Shown here: piece after piece, positions 25,446 to 44,900 of the stretch | Layout of the letters: each line of letters begins with the position of its first letter | Numbering within the stretch: position 1 is the first letter of the stretch | NCBI GenBank assembly: GCA_013288145.1 | Contig: JABDCJ010000009.1 | Coordinates: 1 to 55,973, forward strand | DNA from: Nitrososphaerota archaeon | GTDB lineage: Archaea; Thermoproteota; Nitrososphaeria; Nitrososphaerales; CADDZS01 | Length of the DNA stretch: 55,973 nucleotides | Reading direction: 5' to 3' | Made by a program: the position numbers and the translations under genes | Notes under the pieces: generated by a model | Databases searched by the model: none | Told to the model about the DNA's origin: nothing | What the model saw: only the letters and a program-made list of their open reading frames with translations

Positions 25446-26375
25446 TTACGCAAGACCCGCGACAAGCTGATCCATGTACGCCTTGTTCGCTTTCGCGCTT
25501 CCGTAGGCAGTTTTCCAAGGGATGTCCAGTTCCGCGATCAACCAGCCGTCATAGCCGACATCGACCAAAGCTTGCATAACTTCTTGAAAGTTTACTTCTC
25601 CATCGCCTAGCTCGAGGAATTTCCCTTTTCCGAGATCTTTCATGTGAGTGTGCGAAATCCTCGTTGAATATCTTCTCACGATCTTCGCGGGGTCCTCACC
25701 GACTGCTAGCAAGTGAGCAGTATCTAGGAGGAGACCGATCAATTTCTTGTCGGCGTATTCGTAGAGTCTATCGATGTCTTCTGCATTCTGAGCTAGTGTT
25801 GTCAGATGTGGATGAAAGACAGTCTTTACTCCGAGTTTCCTAAATTCTTCAGCGAGATCGTTCATGTATTCGCCGACCATGCGGTAATAGGATGGACGGA
25901 TGGCTTCACGGAGCATGAACGGACCTCCTAGTGTAATGATCTGTCCCTCAAGCCCCCGGAAATTGTTGGCAAACTCGATCTTATCGATGAAATCGTTCCG
26001 GATGCTTTCAGGAGTTATTTCGTCAATGGCGAGCGGCATGAACTGCCGTGGATCGCTCATCGGTAAATCCGGATTTATCTTGTCGTCCGCCGTGAATGTC
26101 TTTGCCGCTCTTGGAAGAAGAGTAACCCAGCTCGAGGCATATTCCAGTTTGTTTTCCGCCTTCATGTGGAGAAACTCACTTGGATTTGCGAAATACGGAA
26201 CGACGTCAGCGTCGGAACAATCAAAGCCATCGTAATGCAGGCTCGACATTTCCGAGAAGACCTGTTGCAAACTGGTATTCCAGATCTTCCCGTCCCAAGT
26301 ATGCCTAGTTTCTTTGTTGTTTGCTATTCCCCACTCTAGTACGTGGCAGCCTATTTTCATTTTCTCCGTAGCCAA
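25446..26375 (-). CDS. Inosose dehydratase-like TIM barrel (IolE family)
   Basis: This is a 309-residue xylose-isomerase-like TIM barrel. The strand VKTVFHPHLTTLAQN, then GLLLDTAHLLAVG, then ISHTHMKDLGKG and GWLIAELDIPW follow the IolE plan, where His/Asp/His/Glu residues bind the metal that dehydrates 2-keto-myo-inositol. IolE-like enzymes remove water from ketocyclitols. Substrate identity is inference. It is the last gene of a five-gene minus-strand cluster (31005 to 25446), 35 bp after the aminotransferase. That pairing suggests that amino-group removal and dehydration act on the same or successive intermediates. Confidence 0.85.
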   Translation of the reverse strand: MATEKMKIGCHVLEWGIANNKETRHTWDGKIWNTSLQQVFSEMSSLHYDGFDCSDADVVPYFANPSEFLHMKAENKLEYASSWVTLLPRAAKTFTADDKINPDLPMSDPRQFMPLAIDEITPESIRNDFIDKIEFANNFRGLEGQIITLGGPFMLREAIRPSYYRMVGEYMNDLAEEFRKLGVKTVFHPHLTTLAQNAEDIDRLYEYADKKLIGLLLDTAHLLAVGEDPAKIVRRYSTRISHTHMKDLGKGKFLELGDGEVNFQEVMQALVDVGYDGWLIAELDIPWKTAYGSAKANKAYMDQLVAGLA

Positions 26376-26410
26376 GGTTGTGGCACGCGCCTTGTCGTAG
26401 TTTTTGTAAA

Positions 26411-27778
26411 CTAAGCCGGAACTTCTTCGCGGCGAACTTCTTGCATTGACTCTTGACAGGCTTCAACCATATGCTGTACATCTTCTTCAGTGTGTGTAGT
26501 TGAGAGATACATGCGCCCAAATCTTGCGGGGTTGAAGAAGATTCCCCGCTTTGCGAGGCCCTGGAAAAATATTGCCGATCTCCTGATGTGCGGTAACACC
26601 GGTATTGCGTATACCTGCCTTGTCAGCGTTATTTTCTCCAGATCGGTGAAGAATATCGACCACATTGGTCCCGGTCCCTGAACCACTCCCGGAATATGAT
26701 TGTCTGCTAAGGCGTCGCTCATTCCAGCCATTATTGCTTTGCCGTTTTCATAGATCTTTGAATAGCCTTGAGTCTCGAGTTCCTCAAACGTCGCGAGCGA
26801 CGCGGACGTGCAAATGGGATTACCATTGAATGTTCCAGCCATATACGTATGTTCACTTGCAAGCGGTTCAAGGACTTTTTTCGTTCCTGCGACAGCCGCG
26901 GTTGGTAGGCCGTTTGCCATCGCCTTCGAGAATGGTGAGAGGTCTGGAACTACGCCGGTAAAAGCTTGAGCTCCGCCTAAACCGAGTCGGAATCCGTTGA
27001 TAATTTCATCCATGATAAAAGTGATCTCATTCTCCCGGGTTATTTTTCTGACAAACTCGAGGTAACCCTTCTCGGGCGGGATTTGGCCCCAGTTGGACTG
27101 GTATCCCTCCATGATCACTCCAGCTATTTCATTTGCCTGTCTCTGGATAATTTTTTCCAGGGCTTCCTGATCGTTCCACGGCAGCACGATAATGTCGTCG
27201 TAAACACTTTCGGCGACGCCCTGGGCGCTGATAGCTTTGTGCCCGAAGCCTCTCGCCGGAGTACCCATCATCGTCACCGTGGTTCCGACCATGTTCCAAT
27301 CATGCCAGCCGTGGTAGTGCCCCTCGAATTTTACAATCTTCTGCTTGCCCGTGTACGCTCTTGCAAGCCTGACTGTAAGCGAGCAGGCTTCCGATCCAGA
27401 ATTTGTTAGGGCAACTTGCTCCGCGCAGGGAACATGCTTCAAAAATTTCTCTGCGAGCTTCACCTCGCCCTCGGTGTTCAAAGCGAATGACGTTCCGTTG
27501 TCGACCTGATCCTTGACCGCCCGGCTAATGCTCGGGTGTCCATGTCCCAGCAATATCGCGCCGAATCCCAGATGGTAATCTGTAAACTTGTTTCCATCCA
27601 CGTCGTAGATGTACGGACCGTGTCCCTTTGCGATGAAAGAGGGAAGCGTCAGCGGAAATCCTTCGTAATTACCATTAACTATCCCGGACCTCGCGCCGCT
27701 ATTTGTTCCGGTCGGGATTATTTCCCGGGCTCTAGTTAGTAACTCCTTCGATCTTTTGAAAGACTGCTCGGCTTGCAT
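26411..27778 (-). CDS. Glutamate-1-semialdehyde aminomutase-like class III aminotransferase (copy 2)
   Basis: This is a 455-residue PLP enzyme and close paralogue of the gene at 15342. Seen are EIIPTGTNSGARSGI, DYHLGFGAILLGHGHP, TNSGSEACSLTVRLARA, FEGHYHGWHDWNMVG, ITFIMDEIINGFRLGL and PFSKAMANGLPTAAVAG, with the Schiff-base Lys in SKAMANG. Heme-pathway HemL normally differs at this lysine motif. The gene sits inside a sugar/cyclitol gene cluster between an IolE-like and a Gfo/Idh/MocA gene, so an amino-sugar or amino-cyclitol role is more likely than tetrapyrrole synthesis (inference). Spacing of 35 and 81 bp to its neighbours supports co-transcription. Confidence 0.87.
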   Translation of the reverse strand: MQAEQSFKRSKELLTRAREIIPTGTNSGARSGIVNGNYEGFPLTLPSFIAKGHGPYIYDVDGNKFTDYHLGFGAILLGHGHPSISRAVKDQVDNGTSFALNTEGEVKLAEKFLKHVPCAEQVALTNSGSEACSLTVRLARAYTGKQKIVKFEGHYHGWHDWNMVGTTVTMMGTPARGFGHKAISAQGVAESVYDDIIVLPWNDQEALEKIIQRQANEIAGVIMEGYQSNWGQIPPEKGYLEFVRKITRENEITFIMDEIINGFRLGLGGAQAFTGVVPDLSPFSKAMANGLPTAAVAGTKKVLEPLASEHTYMAGTFNGNPICTSASLATFEELETQGYSKIYENGKAIMAGMSDALADNHIPGVVQGPGPMWSIFFTDLEKITLTRQVYAIPVLPHIRRSAIFFQGLAKRGIFFNPARFGRMYLSTTHTEEDVQHMVEACQESMQEVRREEVPA

Positions 27779-27859
27779 TTCCTTGGTAACAAGCGCGTGG
27801 GTTTTTATTTATCAGTTTAGACTGCAAGAAAGTAGAATCAAACTTTCAGAGATTCAGTG

Positions 27860-28987
27860 TTAGGACTCCACGCTTACCCATCTTTCAGTCAACGCTGATT
27901 TCAAAATCGCTTCCATAATTTGATTGACGCGCCATCCGTCGTAGAATGATGGTTGTAACTGCTCACCTTTCGCGACGCCTGCCATTAAATCGCGCATTTG
28001 ATTTGTCAGGGAGTCGAGATACCCCATTCCGATAGATGGGACTCCGAATACAAGCACGTCCCCGTAAGGATGGCGCTGTCCACCGTAGATGGTCTTGAAG
28101 CCTTGCTCGGTTTCGGAATCATGGGACGAGTAGTACCGGAGCTCGTTGGGCCTCTCCATGTCAAAATAGACGGAGCCTTCACTTCCGTTTACTTCAAAGC
28201 CCATCTGCAGCTTTCTCCCCGAGGCAATCCACGAAGCGTTAACTTCTGCTGCGATCCCTCCTTCGAGCCTTAGCAGCGCGAAAGTCGTATCGTCCACGTC
28301 AGATTTCCCTTTGACGTCCTTTTCATTCGGCAACGGCCGGTTTTCGATTATCGTTACAGTTTGTGCACAAACTGCCGTAGGTTCACCCACGAGGTACCTG
28401 ATCATATCAATGGCGTGAGATCCGAGGTCGGCAAGAGCTCCCGCTCCGGCTTGCTTCGAATTGAATCTCCAGGTCAGTGGAAAGTTTGGAGTCGCCCAGT
28501 CCTGGATGAAATGAGTCCTTATCTGGAAAATCTTGCCCAGTCGACCATTTCGGATCATGTCCCTCGCAAAAGTGACGAGCGGGACCCTTCTATAGTTGAA
28601 TCCTACCATGGTGACATTTCCATTCCTCTTGGCGACACTGTACATCTCTTTGGCATCAGCAGCGTTGGACGAAAGTGGCTTTTCGCAGATCACACTCTTG
28701 CCGTGCTCAAGCGCATCAATGGCAGGATCTTTGTGAAGGAAAGTGGGAGTTGCGACGTCAACGAGAGTAACGTCTGGATCATTTGTTACCTTTCTCCAAT
28801 CTGATGTCCAATTGTTAAAGGAGTATCTTTTCGCCGCTGCTTCTGCAAGGGAATCGTTTGCCTCAGCTAATTTGTAAAGTTCGAAGCCCGGCTTGTCCCC
28901 GAAAAATACGGAAATGTTATTGAATCCTATAGCGTGAGCCCGGGCAATAGCTCCGCCGCCTACTAAACCCACTTTGATGGGTGACAT
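27860..28987 (-). CDS. Gfo/Idh/MocA-family NAD(P)-dependent dehydrogenase (copy 1)
   Basis: This is a 375-residue oxidoreductase. The N-terminal Rossmann fold starts VGLVGGGAIARAHAIGF. The catalytic lysine is in VICEKPLSSNAADA (about 100). The His of DLGSHAIDMIRYL lies at about 190. The C-terminal substrate domain has GFEVNGSEGSVYFDMERPNE, a glycoside/inositol-dehydrogenase-like strand. It oxidises a hydroxyl of a sugar, cyclitol or derivative. It is third in the five-gene cluster, 40 bp after the LLM gene and 81 bp before the aminotransferase. Its relatives at 36427 and 37605 share the C-terminal 'GSEGSxxFxxERxxEL' strand. Confidence 0.92.
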   Translation of the reverse strand: MSPIKVGLVGGGAIARAHAIGFNNISVFFGDKPGFELYKLAEANDSLAEAAAKRYSFNNWTSDWRKVTNDPDVTLVDVATPTFLHKDPAIDALEHGKSVICEKPLSSNAADAKEMYSVAKRNGNVTMVGFNYRRVPLVTFARDMIRNGRLGKIFQIRTHFIQDWATPNFPLTWRFNSKQAGAGALADLGSHAIDMIRYLVGEPTAVCAQTVTIIENRPLPNEKDVKGKSDVDDTTFALLRLEGGIAAEVNASWIASGRKLQMGFEVNGSEGSVYFDMERPNELRYYSSHDSETEQGFKTIYGGQRHPYGDVLVFGVPSIGMGYLDSLTNQMRDLMAGVAKGEQLQPSFYDGWRVNQIMEAILKSALTERWVSVES

Positions 28988-29027
28988 TACCAGAAAGCAG
29001 GTGCGTCTATCGTCTCATAATAAATGA

Positions 29028-29984
29028 TTATGAAACTCTCGGGATGACTTCCTTTGCTAGAATTCTCAACGGCTCCACTTCGCTTACGTTTGGCAAGACG
29101 AAAATAAAGTAGGTTACTCCCATGTCTCGAAGATTCTGCACGGTCTTGACACAAAACTCAGGCGTTCCTATCATACCTGCTTCAAAATCGAAAAGCAAGT
29201 GTTCCTGCTCAATTTTCTTTAACAGTCCACTCGTCTTGTCATTGTCTCCAACGAGGGTATTTAGGGCGTATGTCTTCTCGATTGTGTGAAAATCTCTGCC
29301 GACTTTATCGCAGGCTTCTCGAAGAAGCTGAAGTTTTTCAGGAAATATTGCGATGGGACAATTAGGATTCCAGCGGTCAGCATGCGACGCAACCAGTCTG
29401 AGCAGTTTCTTTCCATTCCCACCGATCAATATTGGCGGATGTGGTTTCTGCAGCGGTTTTGGATAGTTTATTGCTCCATCGAGCTGATAGTACTTCCCGC
29501 TAAAGTTCGATTTATCCTCGCTCCACATTTTCTTAATGACCTGCAGAGCTTCTCCCAGTCTGTCAACTCTCTCCATTGCACTGGGGAAAGGAATACCGAA
29601 TCCCTTGAACTCCTCCTCGTACCAGCCCGCACCAATTCCAAATTCTAGGCGGCCGTTTGACATTACATCAATTGTAGAGGAAATTTTTGCAAGGTATGAT
29701 GGGGTGCGAAAGAGGTTGCACGTTACCATGTGTCCCATTCGCAATTTCTTGACTTCGGAGAACAGGGAGGCGAGCAGAGTCCAGCCTTCAAAGCAGGATC
29801 CGTGCGAGAGGGGAATTGTTTCCAAGTGGTCGACCAGCCACCCGGAATCGAACTCGAGTGCTTCTCCTTCTTTCACGATCTCCCTGATCGATTGAAACTG
29901 TTTATCCGGAGTCGTATCTTCAAGATCCTGGAGTGCACCCTGTGGAATAATAAAACCAAATTTTAGATCACGTGCGACCAAATC
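29028..29984 (-). CDS. LLM-class F420-dependent oxidoreductase (copy 1)
   Basis: This is a TIM-barrel enzyme of the luciferase-like family that uses F420 (or FMN) in sugar or alcohol oxidation. Seen are LKFGFIIPQG, ALEFDSGWLVDHLETIPLS, RMGHMVTCNLFRTPSYLAKI, DVMSNGRLEFGIGAGWYEEEF and PHPPILIGGNGKKLLRLVA. The frame opens to 30062, but that would overlap the preceding gene and add an atypical N-terminus. The TTG at 29984 gives MVARDLKFGF, matching the paralogue at 43820. It is second in the cluster after the TIM barrel at 30037. F420-dependent glucose-6-phosphate-type dehydrogenases belong to this family, so sugar oxidation is plausible. Confidence 0.88.
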   Translation of the reverse strand, partial: DLVARDLKFGFIIPQGALQDLEDTTPDKQFQSIREIVKEGEALEFDSGWLVDHLETIPLSHGSCFEGWTLLASLFSEVKKLRMGHMVTCNLFRTPSYLAKISSTIDVMSNGRLEFGIGAGWYEEEFKGFGIPFPSAMERVDRLGEALQVIKKMWSEDKSNFSGKYYQLDGAINYPKPLQKPHPPILIGGNGKKLLRLVASHADRWNPNCPIAIFPEKLQLLREACDKVGRDFHTIEKTYALNTLVGDNDKTSGLLKKIEQEHLLFDFEAGMIGTPEFCVKTVQNLRDMGVTYFIFVLPNVSEVEPLRILAKEVIPRVS

Positions 29985-30036
29985 AAAAAACTCGATCCAT
30001 TTCGCGATAAAAATTATTCTTTCTGAAAGTGGAAAG

Positions 30037-31005
30037 TTACACTTGGTACCAGATTTTCTCAAGCTTCTTTTTTATCAGGAGCGGCTTGATGTACGCGATT
30101 GCCTTTTCCGCGCCGTCGTCCTGGCTCATCACCGGATCCTCGTGTTCGTAGCTTAGCACATAGTCGTATCCGACCTCGGAAAGTGCAGTGATGATTCGCC
30201 TCCAGGGAACTTGACCCCAGCCCGGAACCCTGAACCTGAACCCTCTGGTCGACCTGAATGGTGAACCATGCGGTGTCGCACCGGAGTAGCGAAGATTCTC
30301 TTCTACAAGTTCGGCGTCTTTAAGATGAAAGTGGAAAATTCGATCGCCGAATTGTTTGATAAAAAGTACGGGGTCGATCTGCTGCCAGAGTATATGGCTG
30401 GGATCAAAGTTGAAGCCGAATTCTTTCCTGCCGTCAACGGCTTTTGCTGCCTCCGACGCGGTTTCTATGTTGTAGGCTAATTCTTGCGGGTGCGGCTCGT
30501 GGGCAAACTTGATTCCACTGTCCCGAAAATAATCCAGAATCGGGTTCCATCTTTCTGCAAAGGTAGCAAAGAAACTCTCGAAGATTTTGGCGTTAAGCGG
30601 AGGAAATGGGTACCAAGCTCCCCAGTTGGGACACCCGATAAAGCCGTTCACGACAGGAACGTCTAGGAGTCTTGCAGCATCGACAGTTTTCTTGACCTGG
30701 GACGTGCCGAATTTTTCCTTTTCCGCTGCACTCCCTTTGTAGATCGGATCGGTCGATTCGTCGTATGGTCCCAGTACTAGCTGACTATCCAGAGAATTGT
30801 TCAAAGCTGAAATGGTGATGCCGTGCTTGGAGACAAGATTCTTCAATTGCTGTGCTTCGCCGTTGAGCACATTGTCAAGAACGAGGTGTCTTGTCCCCAT
30901 CCAAGTGGCGAGCTCTACCGCTTCATACCCCATGGATGAGATATGAGGAAGCACCTTTTCGAGCGGCAGATCGTCGTACATTATCGAGAATAAGCCCATC
31001 TTCAC
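30037..31005 (-). CDS. Sugar isomerase/epimerase-like TIM barrel, first gene of five-gene cluster
   Basis: This is a 322-residue xylose-isomerase-like barrel. It has the metal ligands Glu in KFAHEPHPQELAYNI (about 165), Asp/His in FGFNFDPSHILWQQ (about 198), His in IFHFHLKDAEL (about 229) and Glu in VLSYEHEDPVMS (about 288). The FDPSHLxW run is shared with many IolI-type and hydroxypyruvate-isomerase-like proteins of sugar operons. It starts the cluster 31005 to 25446 and is divergent from the solute-binding protein gene at 31170. Control with that transporter is likely through the 164-bp intergenic region. Confidence 0.88.
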   Translation of the reverse strand: MKMGLFSIMYDDLPLEKVLPHISSMGYEAVELATWMGTRHLVLDNVLNGEAQQLKNLVSKHGITISALNNSLDSQLVLGPYDESTDPIYKGSAAEKEKFGTSQVKKTVDAARLLDVPVVNGFIGCPNWGAWYPFPPLNAKIFESFFATFAERWNPILDYFRDSGIKFAHEPHPQELAYNIETASEAAKAVDGRKEFGFNFDPSHILWQQIDPVLFIKQFGDRIFHFHLKDAELVEENLRYSGATPHGSPFRSTRGFRFRVPGWGQVPWRRIITALSEVGYDYVLSYEHEDPVMSQDDGAEKAIAYIKPLLIKKKLEKIWYQV

Positions 31006-31169: not shown

Positions 31170-33260
31170 TTGAGCGAAAAGTTACGTTTTCGAAAAGTTA
31201 CCGCGATATCCCGTGTTGTCATTGTAGTAATCGTTATAGTAGTTCTCGTAATTGCGGCTGCGGCTGCCCTGTCGCTATCAGGCAGTTCATCCACCAGCAG
31301 TAGCAGTTCATCATCCTCTTCTAGCTCGTCATCTTCTTCCTCCATTGCAACTTCCTCGTCTTCCGCTCCGCCTACTTCGTCCTCTTCATCCTCTTCGTCA
31401 TCTCAATCTTCAACTATAACATCCTCGTCCTCATCACAATCAACTTCTTCATCCTCTTCTTCTCAGCAGACTAGCTCCACATCTTCAAGCTCTAGTTCGA
31501 GCGGTGGCGGAGCTCCTTCGCTTTTGACGATTGATGATTTCTCATGGCCAGCGGGCGAGCTAAACCAGCTCAATTCCATTTCCGGTGTGCCATATCCTAA
31601 CTGGCTCTCGTACACAGTGTATCAGCCTCTGGTGACGTTTAACGGGTCCGCGGAGTACAGTCAGGGAGTGCAGCAAATTCTTCCGGTGCTGGCGAAGAAC
31701 TGGACCGTGTCTCCCGATGGTGCATCGTACACTTTCAACTTAAGACCGGGCGTTACATTCTCGAATGGCGACCCATTCAACGCGTACCAGATCTGGGGAG
31801 AAGAGTACGGCTTTTACTATCTAACCGATAATAGCTCAAACTGGTACATCTCTTACAACATTTTCGACATGTCCCACGTGAACTTTGGTCCCGCGACGAT
31901 CGCGTTGATGAACCAGAGTGGGCTCATCAATCCCAATGCTCAACTAATGAGCATTATGAGCAACACGTCATGGCCGATCTATGTTACCGGTCCCAACACA
32001 ATAGTGTTCCACTTCCGGGCTGCAGAGTCCTGGTACCCGAGTGTGTTCTTGGTCTACACCGGTCTTCTATTTGACACACAGTGGCTACTTCAGCACGGAG
32101 GCTTTGGTACGCCGGTCTCGCTTAACACTTACTTCAATACCCATCCCATCCCCGGCACCGGTCCGTACATGGTCACAAATGTTGTCGAGCAAACCTCAGT
32201 GCAGTTTACTCAGAATCCAACTTATTGGGGAAAGAATCTAACCGCTGCTCAGGTTCAGGCAAACCCGTACGTGGATCCGGGGCATGTTAAGAATGTCCTC
32301 GTGCAGGCGAAAGTAGACGATATTAGCAGATACGTAGATCTCTCCTCTGGCACGGCTCAGATATCTGGGATTCAGACACAGGACTGGCCGCTGATCGTAG
32401 CAAATCCGGACAAGTACTCGTACACCTTGTTGCCGAATAATTCTATGGTGTTCGTTGGAATTGCCCTGAATACTCACAGATATCCGACAAACATCACTGC
32501 AGTCAGACAGGCGATTGAGCATGCAATCAACTATTCTGACGTTGCGACGAAGGCCTTCTTTGGAGAGCTCGCGCCATTTTTAGGACCAGAGTATTCTGCC
32601 CAGTCGGCATACTATGACCTGGGCAATCTTCCGCCCTACCAGTACAACGTAAGTTTGGCGCAACAGATCCTGAAGAATGCAAGCGTCAACACGGCAAGTT
32701 TTCCAACTCTAGAATTTCGCATTGAAGCCGGCTGCGCCGCTTGCTTGAATGCTGCGCAGGTTGTGCAGGGTGATCTCTCCGTCATCGGAATAAACGTCAA
32801 TATCGAAGTTACTCCGGCGTCTAGTTACGGTGTACCTGATATTGGCGGTGGCAGCTATGCGCAGAACCTTGCGGCAAACCAGACCATATCGCAACTGACA
32901 TGGTACGGCAGCCTTACCTGGGCGCCTGACGAGCCCACGCCAGCGGACGGATGGTTATTAGCCGTCAATAACCAGTCTACTGCAGGAAACTATGCACTCT
33001 ATGCCAATCCCAACGTACAGCCGTGTGTTAACGCCTGGACTAACGGAGCGAGTAATACTACTCTGAAGAGCCTTTGTACCACCGCACAGGCGCAAGTTTA
33101 CCACGACGCTCCCTATGTTTACCTTGGCACAGTGAAGTTACTCTTCGGCGGCGGGTCAGTTGCGTGGAACAAAGCAGTTGTCAAGAGCCTTCTGATAGAT
33201 CCAGACTTCTCTGGTCAGGGTTACAGCGTCTTCAACACGGTTCAGTTCGTGGGAAGTTAG
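31170..33260 (+). CDS. Family-5 ABC transporter solute-binding protein with membrane anchor (copy 1)
   Basis: This 696-residue lipoprotein-like receptor catches a solute outside the cell and hands it to an ABC permease. Residues about 14-37 (VIVVIVIVVLVIAAAAAL) form a signal anchor. A Ser/Thr-rich linker of about 75 residues follows, then the SBP_bac_5 domain: VYQPLVTFN, then LAKNWTVSPDGASYTFNLRP, then FSNGDPFNAYQIW, GTGPYMVTNV and AINYSDVATKAFFGELAPFLGP. Start is TTG at 31170. In archaea family-5 proteins bind peptides or oligosaccharides; the sugar setting favours a carbohydrate (inference). No permease or ATPase gene is in the window. A paralogue lies at 40231. Confidence 0.93.
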   Translation: MSEKLRFRKVTAISRVVIVVIVIVVLVIAAAAALSLSGSSSTSSSSSSSSSSSSSSSSIATSSSSAPPTSSSSSSSSSQSSTITSSSSSQSTSSSSSSQQTSSTSSSSSSSGGGAPSLLTIDDFSWPAGELNQLNSISGVPYPNWLSYTVYQPLVTFNGSAEYSQGVQQILPVLAKNWTVSPDGASYTFNLRPGVTFSNGDPFNAYQIWGEEYGFYYLTDNSSNWYISYNIFDMSHVNFGPATIALMNQSGLINPNAQLMSIMSNTSWPIYVTGPNTIVFHFRAAESWYPSVFLVYTGLLFDTQWLLQHGGFGTPVSLNTYFNTHPIPGTGPYMVTNVVEQTSVQFTQNPTYWGKNLTAAQVQANPYVDPGHVKNVLVQAKVDDISRYVDLSSGTAQISGIQTQDWPLIVANPDKYSYTLLPNNSMVFVGIALNTHRYPTNITAVRQAIEHAINYSDVATKAFFGELAPFLGPEYSAQSAYYDLGNLPPYQYNVSLAQQILKNASVNTASFPTLEFRIEAGCAACLNAAQVVQGDLSVIGINVNIEVTPASSYGVPDIGGGSYAQNLAANQTISQLTWYGSLTWAPDEPTPADGWLLAVNNQSTAGNYALYANPNVQPCVNAWTNGASNTTLKSLCTTAQAQVYHDAPYVYLGTVKLLFGGGSVAWNKAVVKSLLIDPDFSGQGYSVFNTVQFVGS

Positions 33261-33287: not shown

Positions 33288-34178
33288 CTAAATTGGGTAG
33301 GCGCTTCTGACTAATTCCGAGTAGATTTCGGGGCGCCGGGATCTCAATCCAGAGTCCGGCCGACCGCGCTCTACTTCCAGAAGTTCTTTGGTAAAGTCCG
33401 CCACGATCATTTCCTCCTTGGCGCCAGACTCCGCCAGAATCTGTCCTTTCGGATCCAATAACACACTGAATCCCGGATAAGAGTATTGATCGGACACTCT
33501 TCCCACTTGGTCCACGAATACCACATAGGCTTTGTTGTCGTAGGCCCTGCTGGGGATAAATGTTAGAACCTCCTTTCGTCGATCCTCAGATTTTCCAGAA
33601 GTTGGTGGTCCGAAAACATCCTCGTTGGACCATGCATGAGGCATAAGAATGATCTCAGCTCCCTTTAGGGCAAGGATTCTCGCTGCTTCCGGCATCGTAT
33701 TGTCAAAACACGTTGCGATGCCGACCGTGCAACCACTAACATTGAACACTGGAAATTCGGATCCGGACTTGCAATATGGGTACTCGCATGCGGGCATGTG
33801 CGTTTTCCTGTATTTGCCCACGAATCCCTGCGGACCGAACATGAAATAGGAGTTGTAGACGATGTGATTTTCAAATTCAAAAATACCGGCGGAAATATAG
33901 ATTCCCAGCTCCTTTGCAAGATCTCCGATGGACTTTGCAGAAGGTCCGTCAGGCACTGGTTCAGCTATCTTGTGCACTTCAAGATAGATCTGATCTCCGG
34001 AAAGTTTTGAGTCGACTCCGGCGGCATAAAATCCGGATATGCTCATCTCAGGAAAACAAACTAGCTCTGCACCTGCATCTTTCGCCTTCTTCGCCCACCA
34101 CTCTGTATTCTTGAGGTTGATGTCTTTCTGTCCTAATTCGCAGCGCATTTGCACGCCGGCGACGCGTATATTTCGCAA
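33288..34178 (-). CDS. Carbon-nitrogen hydrolase (nitrilase superfamily amidase)
   Basis: This 296-residue enzyme hydrolyses amides, carbamoyls or nitriles. The Glu-Lys-Cys triad is present: Glu in VCFPEMSISGFY (about 43), Lys in VGKYRKTHMPACEY (about 121), Cys in TVGIATCFDNTMPEAAR (about 157). The N-terminal IRVAGVQMRCELGQKDINLK is typical of N-carbamoylputrescine amidase-like members. It is the last gene of the second minus-strand cluster (38771 to 33288), 60 bp after a dehydrogenase, and is convergent with the solute-binding protein. An amidase beside dehydrogenases and aminotransferases fits breakdown of an N-acylated or aminated substrate (inference). Confidence 0.9.
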   Translation of the reverse strand: MRNIRVAGVQMRCELGQKDINLKNTEWWAKKAKDAGAELVCFPEMSISGFYAAGVDSKLSGDQIYLEVHKIAEPVPDGPSAKSIGDLAKELGIYISAGIFEFENHIVYNSYFMFGPQGFVGKYRKTHMPACEYPYCKSGSEFPVFNVSGCTVGIATCFDNTMPEAARILALKGAEIILMPHAWSNEDVFGPPTSGKSEDRRKEVLTFIPSRAYDNKAYVVFVDQVGRVSDQYSYPGFSVLLDPKGQILAESGAKEEMIVADFTKELLEVERGRPDSGLRSRRPEIYSELVRSAYPI

Positions 34179-34238
34179 ATCTTGTTCTAGGGGAACAATA
34201 TTCTTGAATGTATATTAGCCGTTCGCGGAAATTTCCGA

Positions 34239-35282: not shown

Positions 35283-35349
35283 TGTTAACGGGCTTTTACC
35301 TAGTTTGTAAAATAAGCCTATTGAACGCAAGGGGCAAAACTGGACCGAA

Positions 35350-36378: not shown

Positions 36379-36426
36379 ATCTCAATACGTCCTTTTGCGC
36401 AGTCTAGTTAGACTCTGATTTTCCTC

Positions 36427-37590
36427 TTACGGCTTCGGTTCGATTTTGACCCAACGCTTGGTCCTGTTGGATTCAACAATTGAATCGATCAACAACGAGT
36501 TGATGTATCCGTCTCTGAACGTCGGTATTTCAGGACCGCCAGAAGTTCCCGCCGCAATCTTGTCGTAAAAGTCCTTCAATTCCACAACAAACAAATGATT
36601 CCAGGTAAAGCCTCCACCTTGGTCGACCCAGAATTTGTCCATCCTCGGATGATCTTTTGACGTCACAAAAACGGTTCTAAATCCATTAACCTCGGGCGAG
36701 CTGTCCCTTAAGTACACTTCCAATTCTGTCATACGTTCAAAATTGAATCTGATTGATCCTTCGCTTCCGTGAACTTCAAAGTAAAAGAAATCTTTCTTCC
36801 CTGCCGCCATCCAGCTAGAGTCAATAACCCCGAGAGCCCCGGACTTGAATTTTAGGGCAGCTACTGCTACGTCGTCAACGGTTACAGCTTTCTTTTTCGT
36901 TGGATCGTCCGGCAATGGTCTTTCGTGAACTATCGTTTCCGTGGCTCCGCACACCTCGGTAACATCCCCCAACAGATAATACACCATATCCAAGACGTGC
37001 GAACCCAGATCGGTTATCGCACCATTGCCGGCGATAGTTCTATCAAAGTGCCAGTGAAATGGAAGATTCGGATCGAGATAGCCGTTCAGCCCTGTCTCGA
37101 TGTTCATGTAGCAACACCGGATGTTGAATATTCGCCCGAGTTTTCCGGAGTCAATCAGGTTTTTTGCAAAGATGACTGCCGGAGCAAACCTCACTGTGAA
37201 GCCGGTCATCGAAACCGTGTTGAATTTCGAAACTGTTCTGTACATCTCGTAAGCTTCATCAGCGTTTCTCGCGAGTGGCTTTTCGCAAAAGATCGCTTTG
37301 CCCAATTCTGCGGTTTCTTGACACAAATCCACACGGAGGTCAGGAGGCGCGCAGTTGTCCACAACTTGTACTTTTGGATCCCGTACTAGATCCCTCCAAT
37401 CTGCATAGGTCTTGTCGAATCCAAAACTTTCCGACATTTCAGCGCGTCTTGTGGAATCCCGAGCGCAAAAAGCTGCAAGCGTGGGTCTTGAGCCAAGATC
37501 ACTATAGAATAGCGGAAGGTTCTTCCAGGCATGGGCGTGGACGCGACCTATCCCAGAGCCGATGATTCCAATTCCTATTTCTTTGGACAA
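36427..37590 (-). CDS. Gfo/Idh/MocA-family dehydrogenase (copy 3)
   Basis: This 387-residue enzyme has IGIGIIGSGIGRVHAHAW, the catalytic-Lys motif IFCEKPLARNADEAYEMY and ITDLGSHVLDMVYYLLGD (active-site His). The C-terminal strand FEVHGSEGSIRFNFERMTEL precedes a Pro/Trp-rich segment. It is clearly paralogous to the adjacent 37605 gene (shared NCAPPD, EKPLAR and WVDQGGG/WPDQGTS segments), a likely tandem duplication with later divergence. The 14-bp gap indicates one transcript. Two tandem, non-identical dehydrogenases suggest a heteromer or two successive oxidations. Confidence 0.92.
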   Translation of the reverse strand: MSKEIGIGIIGSGIGRVHAHAWKNLPLFYSDLGSRPTLAAFCARDSTRRAEMSESFGFDKTYADWRDLVRDPKVQVVDNCAPPDLRVDLCQETAELGKAIFCEKPLARNADEAYEMYRTVSKFNTVSMTGFTVRFAPAVIFAKNLIDSGKLGRIFNIRCCYMNIETGLNGYLDPNLPFHWHFDRTIAGNGAITDLGSHVLDMVYYLLGDVTEVCGATETIVHERPLPDDPTKKKAVTVDDVAVAALKFKSGALGVIDSSWMAAGKKDFFYFEVHGSEGSIRFNFERMTELEVYLRDSSPEVNGFRTVFVTSKDHPRMDKFWVDQGGGFTWNHLFVVELKDFYDKIAAGTSGGPEIPTFRDGYINSLLIDSIVESNRTKRWVKIEPKP

Positions 37591-37604
37591 AATATTTTCC
37601 TCCT

Positions 37605-38771
37605 TTACTTTCCTTTGGGAGTTACTTCATGCCAATTGCCGTCTCTGGCGGATGCTATGAGTTCGTCATTTATTAGGGCAGTGATATACCCATCGTAGAA
37701 GGAGGCTCCCAGCGGTTCGACGCTCTCAGATTTCTCAACCGAGTTCAAGAAATGAGCCAGCTCTGATATGAAACTTTGTTCGAACCCATAACTCGTCCCC
37801 TGATCCGGCCAGAAGCGCTGCATCAGCGGGTGGGCCTTGCTCGTGCAAAGGATCGTTTTGTATCCGTTCATTGCAAAGTCCCGATCGTCGTGAATATACA
37901 CCTCTAGCTCTGCCGGTCGCTCGAAATTAAAACGGAGGCTTCCTTTCGTACCATACACTTCCAGCACGAGATAGTCTCTAGTTGCAACCGGTAACCAAGA
38001 GACACTGAGATTTCCAATTGCCCCGTCAGCAAATCTAAAGCAACCTACGACTAGGTCTTCGACGTCTACCGTTCCCTTAGACGAGTTGTTCTCCGGTAGC
38101 GGACGTTCCTTTACGAATGTTTGGGTGGCGCCGCAAACTGAAGAAATTTCTCCGATAATGAATCGCAGAAGGTCTATCACGTGCGAGCCTAATTCATTGA
38201 TTGCGCCGTGTCCCCCAATCTCACTGCGAAAACTCCAAGTGAGTGGAATGTTTGGATTACTGTATCCTTCCCCTGTTTCGATATTGTAAAATGTTGCAAC
38301 AACGTGGGTTATCTTTCCAAGCCGGCCGCTGCGCACTAATTCGCGGGCATACATTGTCGAGGGGAGGAATCTTTTGTTGAACCCCGTCATGTGAACCTGT
38401 CCGGTCTTTTCGGTCTGACGGTACATTTCGTAGGCCTCGGACGCAGTCCTTGCCAGTGGCTTTTCGCAGATTACAGATTTTCCTGATTCCGCCGCCAAAA
38501 TGCACGGTTCCAGATGAAGGTCAGGTGGAGCGCAGTTGTCCAGGATCTCCACTTGCGGATCTTTGATAAGATCCTTCCAATCACTGTAAGTCTTTTCGCT
38601 TCCATAGTGTTCTGCGAAAGGCTTCAATGTCTTTTCGTTGCGTCCGCAGACCGCGGCAAGCCTTGGGGAGTAAGTAGTGGGATAAAATTGTGTTAGGTTC
38701 AGCCAAGCGTGGGTGTGAACCTTGCCTATTACGTATCCGAGGAGGCCGATGCCAATTTCTTTGCGTGTCAT
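37605..38771 (-). CDS. Gfo/Idh/MocA-family dehydrogenase (copy 4), first gene of second cluster
   Basis: This is a 388-residue NAD(P) enzyme: IGIGLLGYVIGKVHTHAW, VICEKPLARTASEAYEMYRQ (catalytic Lys) and INELGSHVIDLLRFIIGE (His). The C-terminal strand is LEVYGTKGSLRFNFERPAEL. The glycine motif GLLGYVIG is looser than GxGxxG: Tyr-Val replaces one Gly, which is unusual for NAD binding but shares its position with the paralogue at 36427. It opens the minus-strand cluster; the promoter should lie in 38772-38900. Confidence 0.9.
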   Translation of the reverse strand: MTRKEIGIGLLGYVIGKVHTHAWLNLTQFYPTTYSPRLAAVCGRNEKTLKPFAEHYGSEKTYSDWKDLIKDPQVEILDNCAPPDLHLEPCILAAESGKSVICEKPLARTASEAYEMYRQTEKTGQVHMTGFNKRFLPSTMYARELVRSGRLGKITHVVATFYNIETGEGYSNPNIPLTWSFRSEIGGHGAINELGSHVIDLLRFIIGEISSVCGATQTFVKERPLPENNSSKGTVDVEDLVVGCFRFADGAIGNLSVSWLPVATRDYLVLEVYGTKGSLRFNFERPAELEVYIHDDRDFAMNGYKTILCTSKAHPLMQRFWPDQGTSYGFEQSFISELAHFLNSVEKSESVEPLGASFYDGYITALINDELIASARDGNWHEVTPKGK

Positions 38772-40230: not shown

Positions 40231-42267
40231 TCAGCCATTTACAAAAGTTACAGTATTGAAAATAGCTGAGGTCGTCTGACCTGTGAATATGGGGTCGAAC
40301 AGCATGCTCTTGATTACGCTCTTTTCATAGCAGACTGAGCCTGCACCGAAAACTAGGGTCGTCGCACCCAACCAGATATACGGCGCGTCGTTATAGTATT
40401 GGGCTTGGGCGGCAGTGCAGAGTTGCAAGATATTCGAAACGTTCGAGGTAGTTTCCCACGCGTTAACGCATTTCTGAACAACTGGATTGGCGTATACTGC
40501 ATAATCGTTTACCGGCGTGTTGTAATTTCCGAATAATATCCATGCGTCAGCCGGAGTAGGAGCGTCAGGAGCGAATGTACTCAGACCGAACCATTGTAAT
40601 TGTGCACTCTGGTTTGCATCAGCAAGTGCTTGCTGATACGATCCATACCCTGAAATGTACGGTAAATTGAACTGACTCGATTCGGTTACCTCAATATTCA
40701 CCGTTATCCCAAGCTGCCCAAGATCCGCCTGCACTAACTGGGCGGTAGTAACACAATACGAACAGCCGGCGACAACCCTGAATTCAAGCGCGGGGAGACT
40801 AGCGACTTTGAGGCCTGACTCGTTCAGATATTGCCGGGCCAGCGTCAAGTTATTGGAGTACGGTGCAAGGTTGCCCAGATCGTAGAACTGTTTCATCGAG
40901 GGGTACTCCGGTCCGACCATAGGTGACAATCCTCCAAAGAATGCTTTTTGATTAATGTCAGTCAAGTTTACTGCGTGTTCCACGGCGAGCCTGAAATCGG
41001 TATTATTCGTAGGGTATCGGTGAGTGTTCATCGCCATGCCAACGAAGAGCATGTCATTGCTTGGGAAACGCACGACTCCGTACTTGTCAGGATTTGCAAG
41101 AACCAATGGAAAGTTCGCTGACTCTACCGCCGATATTTGCGCAGCTCCACTTGCGAGATCCGTGTACCTGGCCAAGTCGTCAGTCTTTGCATAGATAATG
41201 ACATTTTTCACGTGTCCTGGATCAAGATAGGGGTTCGCTTGAATCTGAGCAGCGGTTAGATTCTTTCCCCAATAAGCGGAATTCTGAACAAACTTGACAT
41301 AAGCACCTGATTGGACTCCGGTAACTACGTATGGTCCAGTGCCTGGCGGCGGACTGAGATTAAATTTTGGATTAACAGCTGTCAAATTGCCGAATCCGCC
41401 GTTTTGCAAAACATACTGGACGTCATAGAGTAAGCCAATGAAGTCTGGAAGGATTTGTGGAAAATAGATGAAGGGAGCTGCGAGCCGGAATACTATTTGA
41501 TTAGGACTGGTTACATAAATCGGCCAGCTGTTGTTCATCATGATAGAGAGTAAGGCAGAATTTGGTTTGACGACACCACTTTGTTGCATTAGAGCAAGTG
41601 TCGCAGGACCAAATTTTACTCCTGTAAAGTTGAACACGTTATACGCGTTCAAGAAACTAGTATTGTTAGCCGCAAGATAGTAAGTCGCATACATTTGTGC
41701 CCAGACTTGATACGCATTAAATGGATCTCCATTCGAGAAATTGACATTTTGTCTCAGATTGAAGGTATATGTCGTATCATCGGGTGAAGCGGTCCAATTT
41801 GCAGCGAGCATAGGTAGAACTTGAACCGTTCCATTTTGATACAACAAATTTCCATTCACTGTCGTGAGAGACTGATACACTGTGTACATCATGGTATCCG
41901 GCGCAACATATCCGTTAAAGGCAAGTGGATTCAGATCTGCAGGATTCCATACCTCCATATCAATTGTCAGAGTATTAGGACCGCTCTGTGACGTAGAACT
42001 AGAGACCGTGGAGGCTGACGTAGAGGAGGAAGATGACGAGGGAGAAGTAGATGAGGAAGAAGACAAGGTAGAAGTCACGCTAGATCCCGATGATGATGAA
42101 CTTTGAGACGTGGTAGTTGTAACTGAATTGGACGACGATGTAGAAGACGTAGTAGACAAAGAACTTTGCTTTGACAAGAGCAGAGCCGCGCCCGCTATGG
42201 CGGCTACAAGCACAATTACGATAACGATAACAACTGTAACAATGCGAGTGATGCCTTTGATGCTCAT
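40231..42267 (-). CDS. Family-5 ABC transporter solute-binding protein with membrane anchor (copy 2)
   Basis: This is a 678-residue paralogue of the protein at 31170. It has a signal anchor at about 9-33 (IVTVVIVIVIVLVAAIAGAA) and a Ser/Thr linker of about 60 residues. The SBP_bac_5 domain shows LAANWTASPDDTTYTFNLRQ, then FSNGDPFNAYQVW, then GTGPYVVTGV and AVNLTDINQKAFFGGLSPMVGP. A TATA box is centred 27 nt before the ATG, which predicts a leaderless transcript. No permease or ATPase lies nearby. Two paralogues in one island suggest related but distinct ligands. Confidence 0.93.
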   Translation of the reverse strand: MSIKGITRIVTVVIVIVIVLVAAIAGAALLLSKQSSLSTTSSTSSSNSVTTTTSQSSSSSGSSVTSTLSSSSSTSPSSSSSSTSASTVSSSTSQSGPNTLTIDMEVWNPADLNPLAFNGYVAPDTMMYTVYQSLTTVNGNLLYQNGTVQVLPMLAANWTASPDDTTYTFNLRQNVNFSNGDPFNAYQVWAQMYATYYLAANNTSFLNAYNVFNFTGVKFGPATLALMQQSGVVKPNSALLSIMMNNSWPIYVTSPNQIVFRLAAPFIYFPQILPDFIGLLYDVQYVLQNGGFGNLTAVNPKFNLSPPPGTGPYVVTGVQSGAYVKFVQNSAYWGKNLTAAQIQANPYLDPGHVKNVIIYAKTDDLARYTDLASGAAQISAVESANFPLVLANPDKYGVVRFPSNDMLFVGMAMNTHRYPTNNTDFRLAVEHAVNLTDINQKAFFGGLSPMVGPEYPSMKQFYDLGNLAPYSNNLTLARQYLNESGLKVASLPALEFRVVAGCSYCVTTAQLVQADLGQLGITVNIEVTESSQFNLPYISGYGSYQQALADANQSAQLQWFGLSTFAPDAPTPADAWILFGNYNTPVNDYAVYANPVVQKCVNAWETTSNVSNILQLCTAAQAQYYNDAPYIWLGATTLVFGAGSVCYEKSVIKSMLFDPIFTGQTTSAIFNTVTFVNG

Positions 42268-42290
42268 TTTTCTCTTGCATTTTAGCCAAA

Positions 42291-42298
42291 GTATATAA
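42291..42298 (-). promoter_or_regulatory. TATA box of the solute-binding protein gene at 42267
   Basis: On the minus strand the sequence is TTATATAC, centred 27 nt upstream of the ATG. This is the canonical distance for a leaderless archaeal transcript, and the box stands in an AT-rich region. Confidence 0.65.
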
Positions 42299-42563: not shown

Positions 42564-43775
42564 TTATTTGGACGGTATAATTACGGTCTTCATGCTTTCC
42601 ATTTTTCTCATAGCCTTTAGAGCTTGTTCAGTTTCGTCCAAGCCGAATTTGTGTGTTACAATTCTTTCAAAGGGAATCTCTCGGTGATAACGTTCCATCA
42701 CTCTCTTTGCCCAAAGAAAATCAGGAGGCAGTCCGCCATAAACGCCCAGCAAGTTAACGTTCTTCGAGCACAGAAGGAACGGATTTACTGGCTCCGACCC
42801 TCTGTCGGTAAAGTGACCCAGCTCGACGAATGTTCCCTTGTCCCTGATCATACCGATTCCCTCGCTGAACGCACCCGTGACTCCGGCCGCTTCAAAGACC
42901 ACATCCGCGCCCTGACCGAAAGGCGTTAGCTCCTTCACAGCAGCTATCCTAGTTGCCGGATCAGGAAATTTCTCAATACTAATCGTTTCATCTGCGCCAA
43001 ACTCGCGGCAAAGAGCCAGTCGATTATCAGGAGCACCCACAACAATGGTCTTGCCTGCTCCGCAAATTTTGGACATCGCGGTCAGCAAGACGCCAATCGG
43101 TCCCGAGCCCTGGATGACTACAACCTTCCCCGGTCCCATGCCTTGAAAGAGCCAAGAAGCCCCCATAGAGGCGCGACCAAAGGCGCTTGCAGCAATTGAA
43201 AGCGGTTCCAGTAAGACTGCTGCCTCAAGCGGCAAGTCGTCCGATAGTTTGTAAATCGCTTCGATCCCATGTGTATACCTGAACTCTGCCCAGCTTCTCT
43301 GCCAACCCTTTTTCAGAATCGAGTAATCTCTTGGCTCCTTGTTTGCACAGAATACCGGAAAGCCAGTAGCGCAGTAGTAACATTTTCCGCAAGGTGCAGA
43401 ATCCATGTCTTCGACACAAACCGCAACTACATCACCAACCTTCAGGGGCTTGCCTTCGACATCTACCTTTGCAAAATCTTGACCCATCTCTTCAATCCTC
43501 GCAACAAATTCATGCCCAGGGATGAAGGGATAGAACTTTTCGGTCATCCATGGAATAGGCTTGCGATCGTAAATTATGTGTGGGTCGGTTCCACATACAC
43601 CTGTCATTTCAATTTTCAGAAGTACGTCTTTAGGTGCGGGATGAGGTTTTTCGTATTCCTGGACACCAAAAATACCGGGCTCGCTGACAGTCAGCGCGCG
43701 AAAAGAACTATTACTCGTCAATTGCTCCACCAAATGTTTTTTGCAAATTAAAGTGTTTTCTGTAGCGGCAGTCAA
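42564..43775 (-). CDS. Zinc-dependent medium-chain dehydrogenase (glucose/alcohol DH-like)
   Basis: This 403-residue MDR enzyme has the catalytic zinc Cys in MTGVCGTDPHIIYD and His-Glu in IPGHEFVARIEEMG. The structural zinc Cys are in CGKCYYCATGFPVFCANK. The Rossmann motif is VVIQGSGPIGVLLTAM. Its length, and the insert around RDYSILKKGWQRSWAEFR, separate it from the 342-residue enzyme at 35350. It likely oxidises a sugar or polyol alcohol with NAD(P). It follows the LLM gene at 43820 with 44 bp between, suggesting co-transcription. The long polar N-terminus (about 30 residues) may contain a later true start. Confidence 0.9.
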   Translation of the reverse strand: MTAATENTLICKKHLVEQLTSNSSFRALTVSEPGIFGVQEYEKPHPAPKDVLLKIEMTGVCGTDPHIIYDRKPIPWMTEKFYPFIPGHEFVARIEEMGQDFAKVDVEGKPLKVGDVVAVCVEDMDSAPCGKCYYCATGFPVFCANKEPRDYSILKKGWQRSWAEFRYTHGIEAIYKLSDDLPLEAAVLLEPLSIAASAFGRASMGASWLFQGMGPGKVVVIQGSGPIGVLLTAMSKICGAGKTIVVGAPDNRLALCREFGADETISIEKFPDPATRIAAVKELTPFGQGADVVFEAAGVTGAFSEGIGMIRDKGTFVELGHFTDRGSEPVNPFLLCSKNVNLLGVYGGLPPDFLWAKRVMERYHREIPFERIVTHKFGLDETEQALKAMRKMESMKTVIIPSK

Positions 43776-43819
43776 CCCAATTTAGGGCACAAAGTTCCAC
43801 TTCTAGGTAAAACTAGCAT

Positions 43820-44818
43820 TTAGAGTGAGGGAACCACTTGCTGGGCAAAGGGAAGTATACTATTGAGCGTCGGATAGTCCAGAAAGTAGATCATGAATCG
43901 CTGGACGCCGATGTCTATGTATTCAGAAATCCTTTCTGTCACTTGCGCTACTGTTCCTACAACATACTCTTGCTTTACTTGTTCGAGAGTTGCTTCGGTT
44001 GCTGGTTTTCCCTGACGAATGCGCTCAGGATTTATCTTAGTCTGCCATGTAACCCAGTCGACAATCCTCTGGTAGTCCTCCGGCTTGTCAGATATCAAGA
44101 GGTAGGTCTCGAGGGTTTTTTCAATTTCGTCATAATCTCGGCCTATTGCCTGACAATGATTTCGAAGGACAGCAAGTTTACTGGAATAAGCTTCGGGGGA
44201 AAATTCATCAATGTTCCAAGCATCTGCGTACCTTGCAACCGCTCTCAGCAATAATTTCTCCCCCTTTCCGCCAATCAGAATTCTGGGAGACGGTTTTTGA
44301 ATTGGCTTCGGAAGGCAAACGGCATTGCGAATATTGTAGTACTTTCCCTCGAACGTGAAACTATCATTCGTCCAAAGACCCTTTAGGATCTTCAAAGTCT
44401 CGACCAGACGTTCGATGCGTGATTTTGGGATCTCTTCCCAAGGAAGCCCATATGCTAGTTGTTCAAAGCCATTCCAGCCCGCTCCCACTCCCAGATCAAC
44501 TCGTCCGTTCGACATTATGTCAAGAGTAGCAACTATTTTTGCAAGCATCGCAGGGGATCTATGGGTTGGGCAGGTCACAAGAGTACCCAATCTCATAGTT
44601 TCAGTTACTTGGCTCAATCCTGACAAAACAGTCCAGGCTTCTAGCGCTTCCAAATCATGCCCGGTCATGAGGTGATCAGCAACCCAGACAGAATCGAATC
44701 CCAGAGTCTCGCACTTTTCGGTTACGTTTTTCATTCGTTCGAAATTAAGATTGTTATCCCACGCACTGGAACCCGAAATGATCGGTAAATCGAGACCAAA
44801 TTTTGCTTTTCTTGTCAT
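43820..44818 (-). CDS. LLM-class F420-dependent oxidoreductase (copy 2)
   Basis: This is a luciferase-like TIM barrel: AKFGLDLPIISG, TLGFDSVWVADHLMTG, RLGTLVTCPTHRSPAMLAKI, DIMSNGRVDLGVGAGWNGFE and PSPRILIGGKGEKLLLRAVA. It is clearly paralogous to the protein at 29028. The frame opens to 44875, but Met at 44818 (MTRKAKFGLD) gives a family-like start and is preferred. It probably transfers hydride between a substrate alcohol and F420. It pairs with the zinc dehydrogenase downstream. Confidence 0.88.
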   Translation of the reverse strand: MTRKAKFGLDLPIISGSSAWDNNLNFERMKNVTEKCETLGFDSVWVADHLMTGHDLEALEAWTVLSGLSQVTETMRLGTLVTCPTHRSPAMLAKIVATLDIMSNGRVDLGVGAGWNGFEQLAYGLPWEEIPKSRIERLVETLKILKGLWTNDSFTFEGKYYNIRNAVCLPKPIQKPSPRILIGGKGEKLLLRAVARYADAWNIDEFSPEAYSSKLAVLRNHCQAIGRDYDEIEKTLETYLLISDKPEDYQRIVDWVTWQTKINPERIRQGKPATEATLEQVKQEYVVGTVAQVTERISEYIDIGVQRFMIYFLDYPTLNSILPFAQQVVPSL

Positions 44819-44900
44819 TTCCCGGTGAAGGTCAGTTTTCAAATTGTACTTATGAATTTGGAGACCGATATGCATTCCTCAAACGTCCGTCATGCAGTCT

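What the first reader, a model, noticed from the sequence alone, without database searches (positions are those of the whole stretch)
25446..44875. Archaeal sugar/cyclitol catabolic island with no recognised pathway match
Within about 20 kb the minus strand carries two xylose-isomerase-like TIM barrels (one IolE-like), four Gfo/Idh/MocA dehydrogenases, two zinc MDR dehydrogenases, two F420-type LLM enzymes, a HemL-like aminotransferase and a nitrilase-family amidase, flanked by two paralogous solute-binding proteins. Two more TIM barrels and a second HemL-like aminotransferase lie at 13.4-16.7 kb. I know of no described archaeal pathway with this set. The combination fits stepwise oxidation, dehydration and deamination of a cyclitol, amino-cyclitol or amino sugar.
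Basis: partly seen in the sequence, partly recalled or inferred. Interest (0 to 1): 0.75.

Follow-up and report, generated by a model that had tools for sequence, protein, structure and literature searches.

The report
Archaeal cyclitol and sugar breakdown island
A stretch of archaeal DNA carries a cluster of enzymes that most likely oxidise and take apart ring-shaped sugars or inositol-like compounds; similar clusters occur in related archaea, but this one has an extra, unusual amino-group enzyme whose role is not known.

Summary
The genes are there as described (Pfam), except that the two solute-binding proteins lie inside the island and 13 of its 15 genes are on the minus strand. The clustering is not chance: stretches of 16 contigs (11 of 202 related genomes) that encode a relative of one island dehydrogenase hold 42 further island-family matches in 204 kb, against 4 in 178 kb of 20 control contigs. 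"No recognised pathway" is only partly right. One operon resembles the dehydrogenase part of inositol-type islands: IolC-, IolB-, IolD- or IolE-like genes share some of those contigs, and an annotated iolM locus exists in Haloterrigena. Inositol genes are already reported for Gagatemarchaeaceae (PMC10640624). The other operon matches levoglucosan-type oxidise-eliminate-hydrate enzymes. Except the two LLM enzymes, no island protein tested reaches a curated NCBIfam cut-off that would name its reaction, so substrates stay open. The HemL-like aminotransferase is a rare separate clade, linked to the IolE-like enzyme in one other genome and not found on the 16 contig stretches. The nitrilase shows no conserved link. 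Best reading: a lineage-specific variant of a known kind; amino-cyclitol use is possible but unproven.

The parts
25446..26375 (-). TIM_25: IolE/LgdB1-like TIM barrel, candidate metal-dependent beta-eliminase (dehydratase) of a keto sugar or keto cyclitol; HxH, D, H, E positions conserved
   Evidence: PF01261; IolE model 99 bits, cut-off 290; alignment with the TIM barrel of a levoglucosan cluster; 12 proteins at E<=1e-20, its own included
26411..27778 (-). AT_26: HemL-like class-III aminotransferase of a separate clade
   Evidence: PF00202; HemL 362 bits, cut-off 527; SQFE motif replaced, invariant R422
27860..28987 (-). GFO_27: LgdA-like Gfo/Idh/MocA dehydrogenase
   Evidence: levoglucosan dehydrogenase model 364 bits, cut-off 650; PDB 6a3f E 3e-94
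29028..30062 (-). LLM_29: F420-type LLM oxidoreductase
   Evidence: TIGR03560 245 bits, cut-off 231; an LLM gene next to a TIM_30 relative in G343
30037..31005 (-). TIM_30: LgdB2/AtHYD-like TIM barrel, candidate 2-hydroxy-3-keto-glucal-type hydratase
   Evidence: 2zds E 1.5e-51, 8ro4 (2-hydroxy-3-keto-glucal hydratase) E 2.9e-25, candidate ligand residues conserved
31170..33260 (+). SBP_31: family-5 solute-binding protein, likely importer component
   Evidence: PF00496; relatives on 4 of 16 island contigs, 49-59% identical
33288..34178 (-). NIT_33: nitrilase-family amidase of unknown substrate
   Evidence: PF00795; no relative at E<=1e-45 in 202 genomes
34239..35330 (-). GFO_34: IolG-like Gfo/Idh/MocA dehydrogenase
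   Evidence: IolG model 304 bits, cut-off 355; relatives on 7 of 16 island contigs
35350..36378 (-). MDR_35: IolM-like zinc dehydrogenase
   Evidence: IolM model 349 bits, cut-off 450; 37% to annotated iolM of Haloterrigena
36427..37590 (-). GFO_36: LgdA-like Gfo/Idh/MocA dehydrogenase
   Evidence: 301 bits to levoglucosan dehydrogenase model; matches in 11 of 202 genomes
37605..38771 (-). GFO_37: LgdA-like Gfo/Idh/MocA dehydrogenase, paralogue (46%) of the previous
   Evidence: 274 bits; 35% to a Gfo in the Haloterrigena iolM locus
40231..42267 (-). SBP_40: second family-5 solute-binding protein
   Evidence: PF00496, 54% to the first
42564..43775 (-). MDR_42: second zinc MDR dehydrogenase
   Evidence: PF00107/PF08240; MDR-family matches on 8 of 16 island contigs
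43820..44875 (-). LLM_43: second F420-type LLM oxidoreductase
   Evidence: TIGR03560 246 bits, cut-off 231
13414..14271 (-). TIM_13.4: TIM barrel with one candidate metal-ligand position changed (D to C)
   Evidence: PF01261; alignment
14465..15325 (+). TIM_14.5: IolO-like TIM barrel; its relative neighbours TIM_25 and aminotransferase relatives in JOPF120
   Evidence: IolO model 130 bits, cut-off 300; L002
15342..16760 (-). AT_15: second aminotransferase of the same clade, 74% to that of JOPF120
   Evidence: PF00202

Best explanation
The interval is a composite catabolic island for a ring-shaped polyol (an inositol or related cyclitol, or a glycoside handled in the same way). Shown: gene families, operon layout and conserved neighbourhood. 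Inferred: the chemistry. A family-5 binding protein delivers the substrate. Gfo/Idh/MocA enzymes and the IolM-like zinc enzyme oxidise ring hydroxyls to ketones. The IolE/LgdB1-like TIM barrel uses a metal and its HxH pair to beta-eliminate water or an aglycone next to the ketone. The AtHYD/LgdB2-like TIM barrel adds water back to the enone. F420-type LLM enzymes serve as extra redox steps. The aminotransferase works on a ketone intermediate, or removes an amino group from an amino-substituted version of the substrate. This is the least certain step.
For: Families. Eliminase and hydratase assignments with conserved candidate ligand residues. A levoglucosan-type cluster whose LgdA passes its cut-off (747 over 650) has counterparts of GFO_27 (40%), TIM_25 (29%) and TIM_30 (36%). 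Known four-step route: PMC7676230 (abstract and passages). Conserved neighbourhood: 42 non-seed matches on stretches of 16 contigs against 4 on 20 control contigs. Iol-type genes beside the same dehydrogenase families in sister genomes: IolC and IolB-like on 2 of 16 contigs, IolD-like TPP enzymes on 4, IolE-like on 4. Haloterrigena iolM locus.
Against: Apart from the LLM enzymes no island protein tested reaches a curated NCBIfam cut-off, so no substrate is assigned. No IolB, IolC or IolD relative was found in the window. 8 of 16 related contigs carry a match to a sugar-acid dehydratase of the enolase superfamily, which points to plain aldose oxidation for some islands. The MDR, LLM and IolE-like matches in relatives are only 26-40% identical, so they show the family, not the orthologue. 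Three of the 16 stretches (L140, L141, L142) carry only the seed. The aminotransferase and nitrilase are not part of the conserved set.
Confidence: 0.55

Rival explanations
1. Glycoside reading: both operons form a levoglucosan-type 3-keto-glycoside pathway (C3 oxidation, beta-elimination, hydration, reduction), not a cyclitol pathway. GFO_27/36/37 oxidise or reduce C3, TIM_25 eliminates and TIM_30 hydrates.
For: Three of four Gfo proteins score best against levoglucosan dehydrogenase; TIM_30 matches 2-hydroxy-3-keto-glucal hydratase; similar gene set in Arthrobacter; a match to one of the window's Gfo proteins lies near TIM_30 relatives at 8 of 10 loci read, one of the 8 weak. Five of the 10 are plasmid loci picked from 633 matching records, one of them because its Gfo neighbour already showed in the listing.
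Against: 364, 301 and 274 bits against a cut-off of 650; scyllo-inositol dehydrogenase 5ya8 also matches well; IolG-like and IolM-like enzymes were not seen in the Arthrobacter cluster; iol-type genes stand beside the relatives.
Confidence: 0.25
2. Plain oxidative sugar pathway: the dehydrogenases make aldonolactones and sugar acids that are dehydrated by an enolase-superfamily enzyme encoded elsewhere.
For: Matches to a sugar-acid dehydratase on 8 of 16 related contigs, 27-100% identical, the query's own contig included (family scans of some of these).
Against: No such gene was found in the window by the same tblastn; it leaves both TIM barrels unexplained.
Confidence: 0.12
3. The aminotransferases are divergent glutamate-1-semialdehyde aminomutases for haem synthesis and only neighbour the island by chance.
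Against: Below the HemL cut-off (362 of 527). The PPSQFE motif of four loci that I take for HemL is P-x-R-x-G-R in most rows of the clade. Two copies each in the window and in G001. Next to TIM barrels in the window and JOPF120.
Confidence: 0.1

Closest known systems
Bacterial myo-inositol (iol) pathway and its archaeal versions (iolB, C, E, G in Gagatemarchaeaceae, PMC10640624; iolM locus of Haloterrigena turkmenica pHTUR01)
   Same: IolG-like, IolM-like and IolE-like enzymes and LgdA-like Gfo proteins together; some sister genomes add IolC, IolB-like and IolD-like genes
   Different: IolB, IolC and IolD were not found in the 56-kb window; scores are below cut-offs; extra aminotransferase, nitrilase, hydratase-type TIM barrel and LLM enzymes
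Levoglucosan pathway LgdA-LgdB1-LgdB2-LgdC (PMC7676230, PMC10066097)
   Same: Gfo dehydrogenases plus one IolE-like and one larger AtHYD-like TIM barrel
   Different: LgdA cut-off not met; aminotransferase and LLM genes inside the operon; no certain LgdC
Thermotoga inositol route IolG-IolM-IolN-IolO (recalled; family models used here)
   Same: IolG-like, IolM-like and IolO-like proteins in the window
   Different: IolN: 5 of 12 related genomes match, 0 over cut-off, none on an island contig; no IolN match among the window proteins scanned with NCBIfam; IolO-like protein far below cut-off
Rhizopine (scyllo-inosamine) catabolism, moc genes (recalled; search listing only)
   Same: Gfo, IolE-type TIM barrel and a periplasmic binding protein acting on an amino-cyclitol (recalled)
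   Different: No moc gene was compared here; the known pathway has no HemL-like aminotransferase as far as I recall
PctV, 3-aminobenzoate synthase (HemL-like enzyme acting on 3-dehydroshikimate; PDB 4zm4)
   Different: 30% identity; active sites not compared; biosynthetic (recalled)

Membership tests
iol (IolG) | TIGR04380 cut-off 355 bits | tested here: not met
   34239-35330: 304 bits; relatives in G344 and G340 346 and 343
iol (IolE) | TIGR04379 cut-off 290 bits | tested here: not met
   25446-26375: 99 bits
iol (IolB, IolC, IolD) | genes present with the dehydrogenases | tested here: not met
   tblastn with the sister-genome proteins finds none in the window; the rest of the genome is not held
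Thermotoga-type inositol route | IolM cut-off 450, IolO cut-off 300 | tested here: not met
   349 and 130 bits
Levoglucosan dehydrogenase | NF052479 cut-off 650 bits | tested here: not met
   364, 301, 274 bits; positive control L095 747
2-hydroxy-3-keto-glucal hydratase group (AtHYD, SCO6571) | sequence match and conserved E, H, D, H, E positions | tested here: met
   (that these residues bind metal is inferred by analogy with PMC10628242, passages)
2-hydroxy-3-keto-glucal hydratase group (AtHYD, SCO6571) | hydratase activity | not testable with these tools
   needs enzyme assay
HemL (GSAM) | TIGR00713 cut-off 527 bits | tested here: not met
   362 and 360 bits
HemL (GSAM) | PLP lysine (position recalled) | tested here: met
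   K285 in 26 of 26 rows
HemL (GSAM) | SQFE motif near the C terminus | tested here: not met
   E position is G, A or N in 26 of 26 rows; motif present in 4 loci taken for HemL and in 3bs8
F420 LLM family TIGR03560 | cut-off 231 bits | tested here: met
   245 and 246 bits
Nitrilase / N-carbamoylputrescine amidase | NCBIfam equivalog cut-offs | tested here: not met
   133 of 500 and 122 of 410 bits

The most novel reading that the evidence does not exclude
An archaeal amino-cyclitol (inosamine or rhizopine-like) or amino-sugar pathway in which a new clade of HemL-derived transaminase swaps the ring amino group for a ketone, which a new clade of IolE-like enzyme then eliminates, feeding an archaeal inositol-type island.
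Probability: 0.15. Interest if true: 0.7.

Novelty: new variant of a known kind. Interest (0 to 1): 0.45.

Why it matters
If the lineage assignment holds, this is a conserved island for cyclitols or glycosides in little-studied archaea of the Nitrososphaeria, and it names candidate growth substrates for enrichment. Two rare enzyme clades (an IolE-like TIM barrel with 12 detected members, the window's own included, and an aminotransferase that left HemL) could reveal new activities if assayed.
Full report
What was checked. Short names used below give family and start in kb: TIM_25, AT_26, GFO_27, LLM_29, TIM_30 (first operon, 25446-31005); NIT_33, GFO_34, MDR_35, GFO_36, GFO_37 (second operon, 33288-38771); SBP_31, SBP_40, MDR_42, LLM_43; and TIM_13.4, TIM_14.5, AT_15 upstream. 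Thirteen of the 15 genes between 25446 and 44875 are on the minus strand. Gaps inside the two operons are -26 to 81 bases. The two binding proteins are 54% identical and lie inside the island.

Origin. No genome is held for the window. In the genome collection the closest hits of the aminotransferase are Thaumarchaeota archaeon AcS1-27 (59%) and Nitrososphaerales archaeon JOPF120 (53%) (best 80 of a capped list kept). The UbiA protein of the window is 53% identical to that of G319, which belongs to the same family as JOPF120. AcS1-27 is a Gagatemarchaeum (table in PMC10640624). So the window is most likely from the same order, near JOPF120; this is inference, and its habitat and energy metabolism were not tested.

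First operon. GFO_27 matches levoglucosan dehydrogenase 6a3f (E 3e-94) but reaches 364 bits of the 650 needed. TIM_30 matches SCO6571 (2zds, 1.5e-51) and 2-hydroxy-3-keto-glucal hydratase (8ro4, 2.9e-25), with the E, H, D, H, E positions kept. TIM_25 resembles IolE (99 of 290 bits; alignments). It carries an HxH pair, D, H and E shared with the IolE-like TIM barrel of an Arthrobacter agilis cluster. That cluster's LgdA passes the levoglucosan cut-off (747), and it holds counterparts of GFO_27 (40%), TIM_25 (29%) and TIM_30 (36%). The HxH pair resembles His132 and His134 of the O-glycoside eliminase AtOGE (PMC10628242, passages). The known levoglucosan route is oxidation, elimination, hydration, reduction (PMC7676230, abstract and passages; distribution in PMC10066097, passages). 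Keto-directed elimination also serves IolE (recalled), so these matches alone do not choose between glycoside and cyclitol.

Second operon. GFO_34 scores 304 of 355 bits for IolG and MDR_35 349 of 450 for IolM. GFO_36 and GFO_37 are LgdA-like (301 and 274 of 650) and keep the EKP lysine and a conserved histidine; GFO_37 has E in place of a nearly invariant D.

Neighbourhood test. GFO_36 has matches at E<=1e-45 in 11 of 202 genomes drawn from the order, 21 matches on 16 contigs. Stretches of all 16 contigs, up to 20 kb each, were read (fetched). At tblastn E<=1e-10 they hold 63 island-family matches in 204.0 kb: 21 are the seed matches, 42 are others. IolG-like matches are on 7 of 16, MDR on 8, TIM on 7, LLM on 6, SBP on 4, nitrilase on 1, aminotransferase on 0. 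Twenty control contigs of the same genomes, picked by arbitrary number and shorter on average, hold 4 in 178.2 kb. Three of the 16 stretches hold only the seed. GFO_27, GFO_34 and SBP_31 relatives are 43-60% identical; the MDR, LLM and IolE-like matches only 26-40%. The best cases are G344:C51 and G332:C67, with GFO_37, MDR, GFO_34 and GFO_27 relatives in a row. In the family of JOPF120, 4 of 9 genomes match GFO_27 at E<=1e-40.

Iol-type genes beside these islands. On G323:C70 there are IolC (324 bits, over the cut-off of 300), a TPP enzyme related to IolD, and IolB-like (86 of 205) and IolE-like (76 of 290) proteins. On G334:C42 there are a TPP enzyme, IolC-like (293 bits) and IolB-like (84 of 205) proteins. 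TPP enzymes of this kind are on 4 of the 16 stretches and IolE-like proteins on 4. A TPP-IolC-IolB run is also in AcS1-27 (G001:C115, partial locus) and G332:C1, away from the seed contigs. The TPP enzymes score higher against acetolactate synthase models than against IolD, so IolD function is only suggested. In the haloarchaeon Haloterrigena turkmenica a plasmid locus holds two Gfo genes, a TIM barrel, annotated iolM and a TPP enzyme. One of its Gfo proteins, its IolM and its TPP enzyme are 35%, 37% and 43-44% identical to GFO_37, MDR_35 and the sister TPP enzymes. PMC10640624 already states that iolB, C, E and G were gained by the Gagatemarchaeaceae ancestor (passage). Against the inositol reading: 8 of 16 stretches carry a match to an enolase-superfamily sugar-acid dehydratase, and the window has no IolB, IolC, IolD or such dehydratase by the same search.

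TIM_25 clade. Twelve proteins, the window's own included, at E<=1e-20 among 827 candidates of a 5.8-billion-protein set; this search needs shared five-residue words, so distant relatives can be missed. In the order, 2 of 202 genomes match at E<=1e-50.

TIM_30 and LLM. TIM_30 has matches at E<=1e-30 in 4 of 202 genomes. In G343 one run of genes holds GFO_37, GFO_34, TIM_30 and LLM relatives followed by an enolase-superfamily gene. A match to one of the window's Gfo proteins lies near TIM_30 relatives at 8 of 10 loci read, one of them weak (L093); at L103 a neighbouring Gfo is my own reading of the sequence, and L106 has none. Five of these 10 loci are all the hits; the other five are plasmid loci that I picked out of 633 matching records, one because its Gfo neighbour already showed in the listing.

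Verdict. The cyclitol idea is the best-supported substrate class for the second operon, with levoglucosan-type chemistry for the first. The amino part is an open and testable addition. Overall it is a new variant of a known kind.

Noticed in passing
window 20388-24116 (-): Three-subunit molybdenum hydroxylase (CoxL/M/S type; PaoC model 535 of 1180 bits) next to the first operon. Related genes also stand near GFO_37 relatives in L105 and L141, so it may be a further oxidation step.
   Followed up: partly
window 48724-50805 (+): Old-yellow-enzyme family protein (mycofactocin OYE model 498 of 793 bits). A 76% identical gene sits directly before GFO_27, LLM and GFO_37 relatives in L133; it could reduce enones made by elimination.
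   Followed up: partly
window 13414-14271 (-): TIM barrel that keeps the Glu but has Cys where most of the aligned proteins have a candidate metal-binding Asp; possibly altered activity.
   Followed up: no
L103 13992-17640: The closest TIM_30 relative found (63%) stands beside what I read as a fumarylacetoacetate-hydrolase-like gene and a divergent Gfo gene (own reading).
   Followed up: no
window 51336-52151 (-): DNA methylase of the N6/N4 type, with no restriction gene recognised among the proteins scanned.
   Followed up: no
G001 (AcS1-27) and G002 (JOPF120): No HemL with the usual motif was found at E<=1e-40 in either genome; may be incompleteness.
   Followed up: partly
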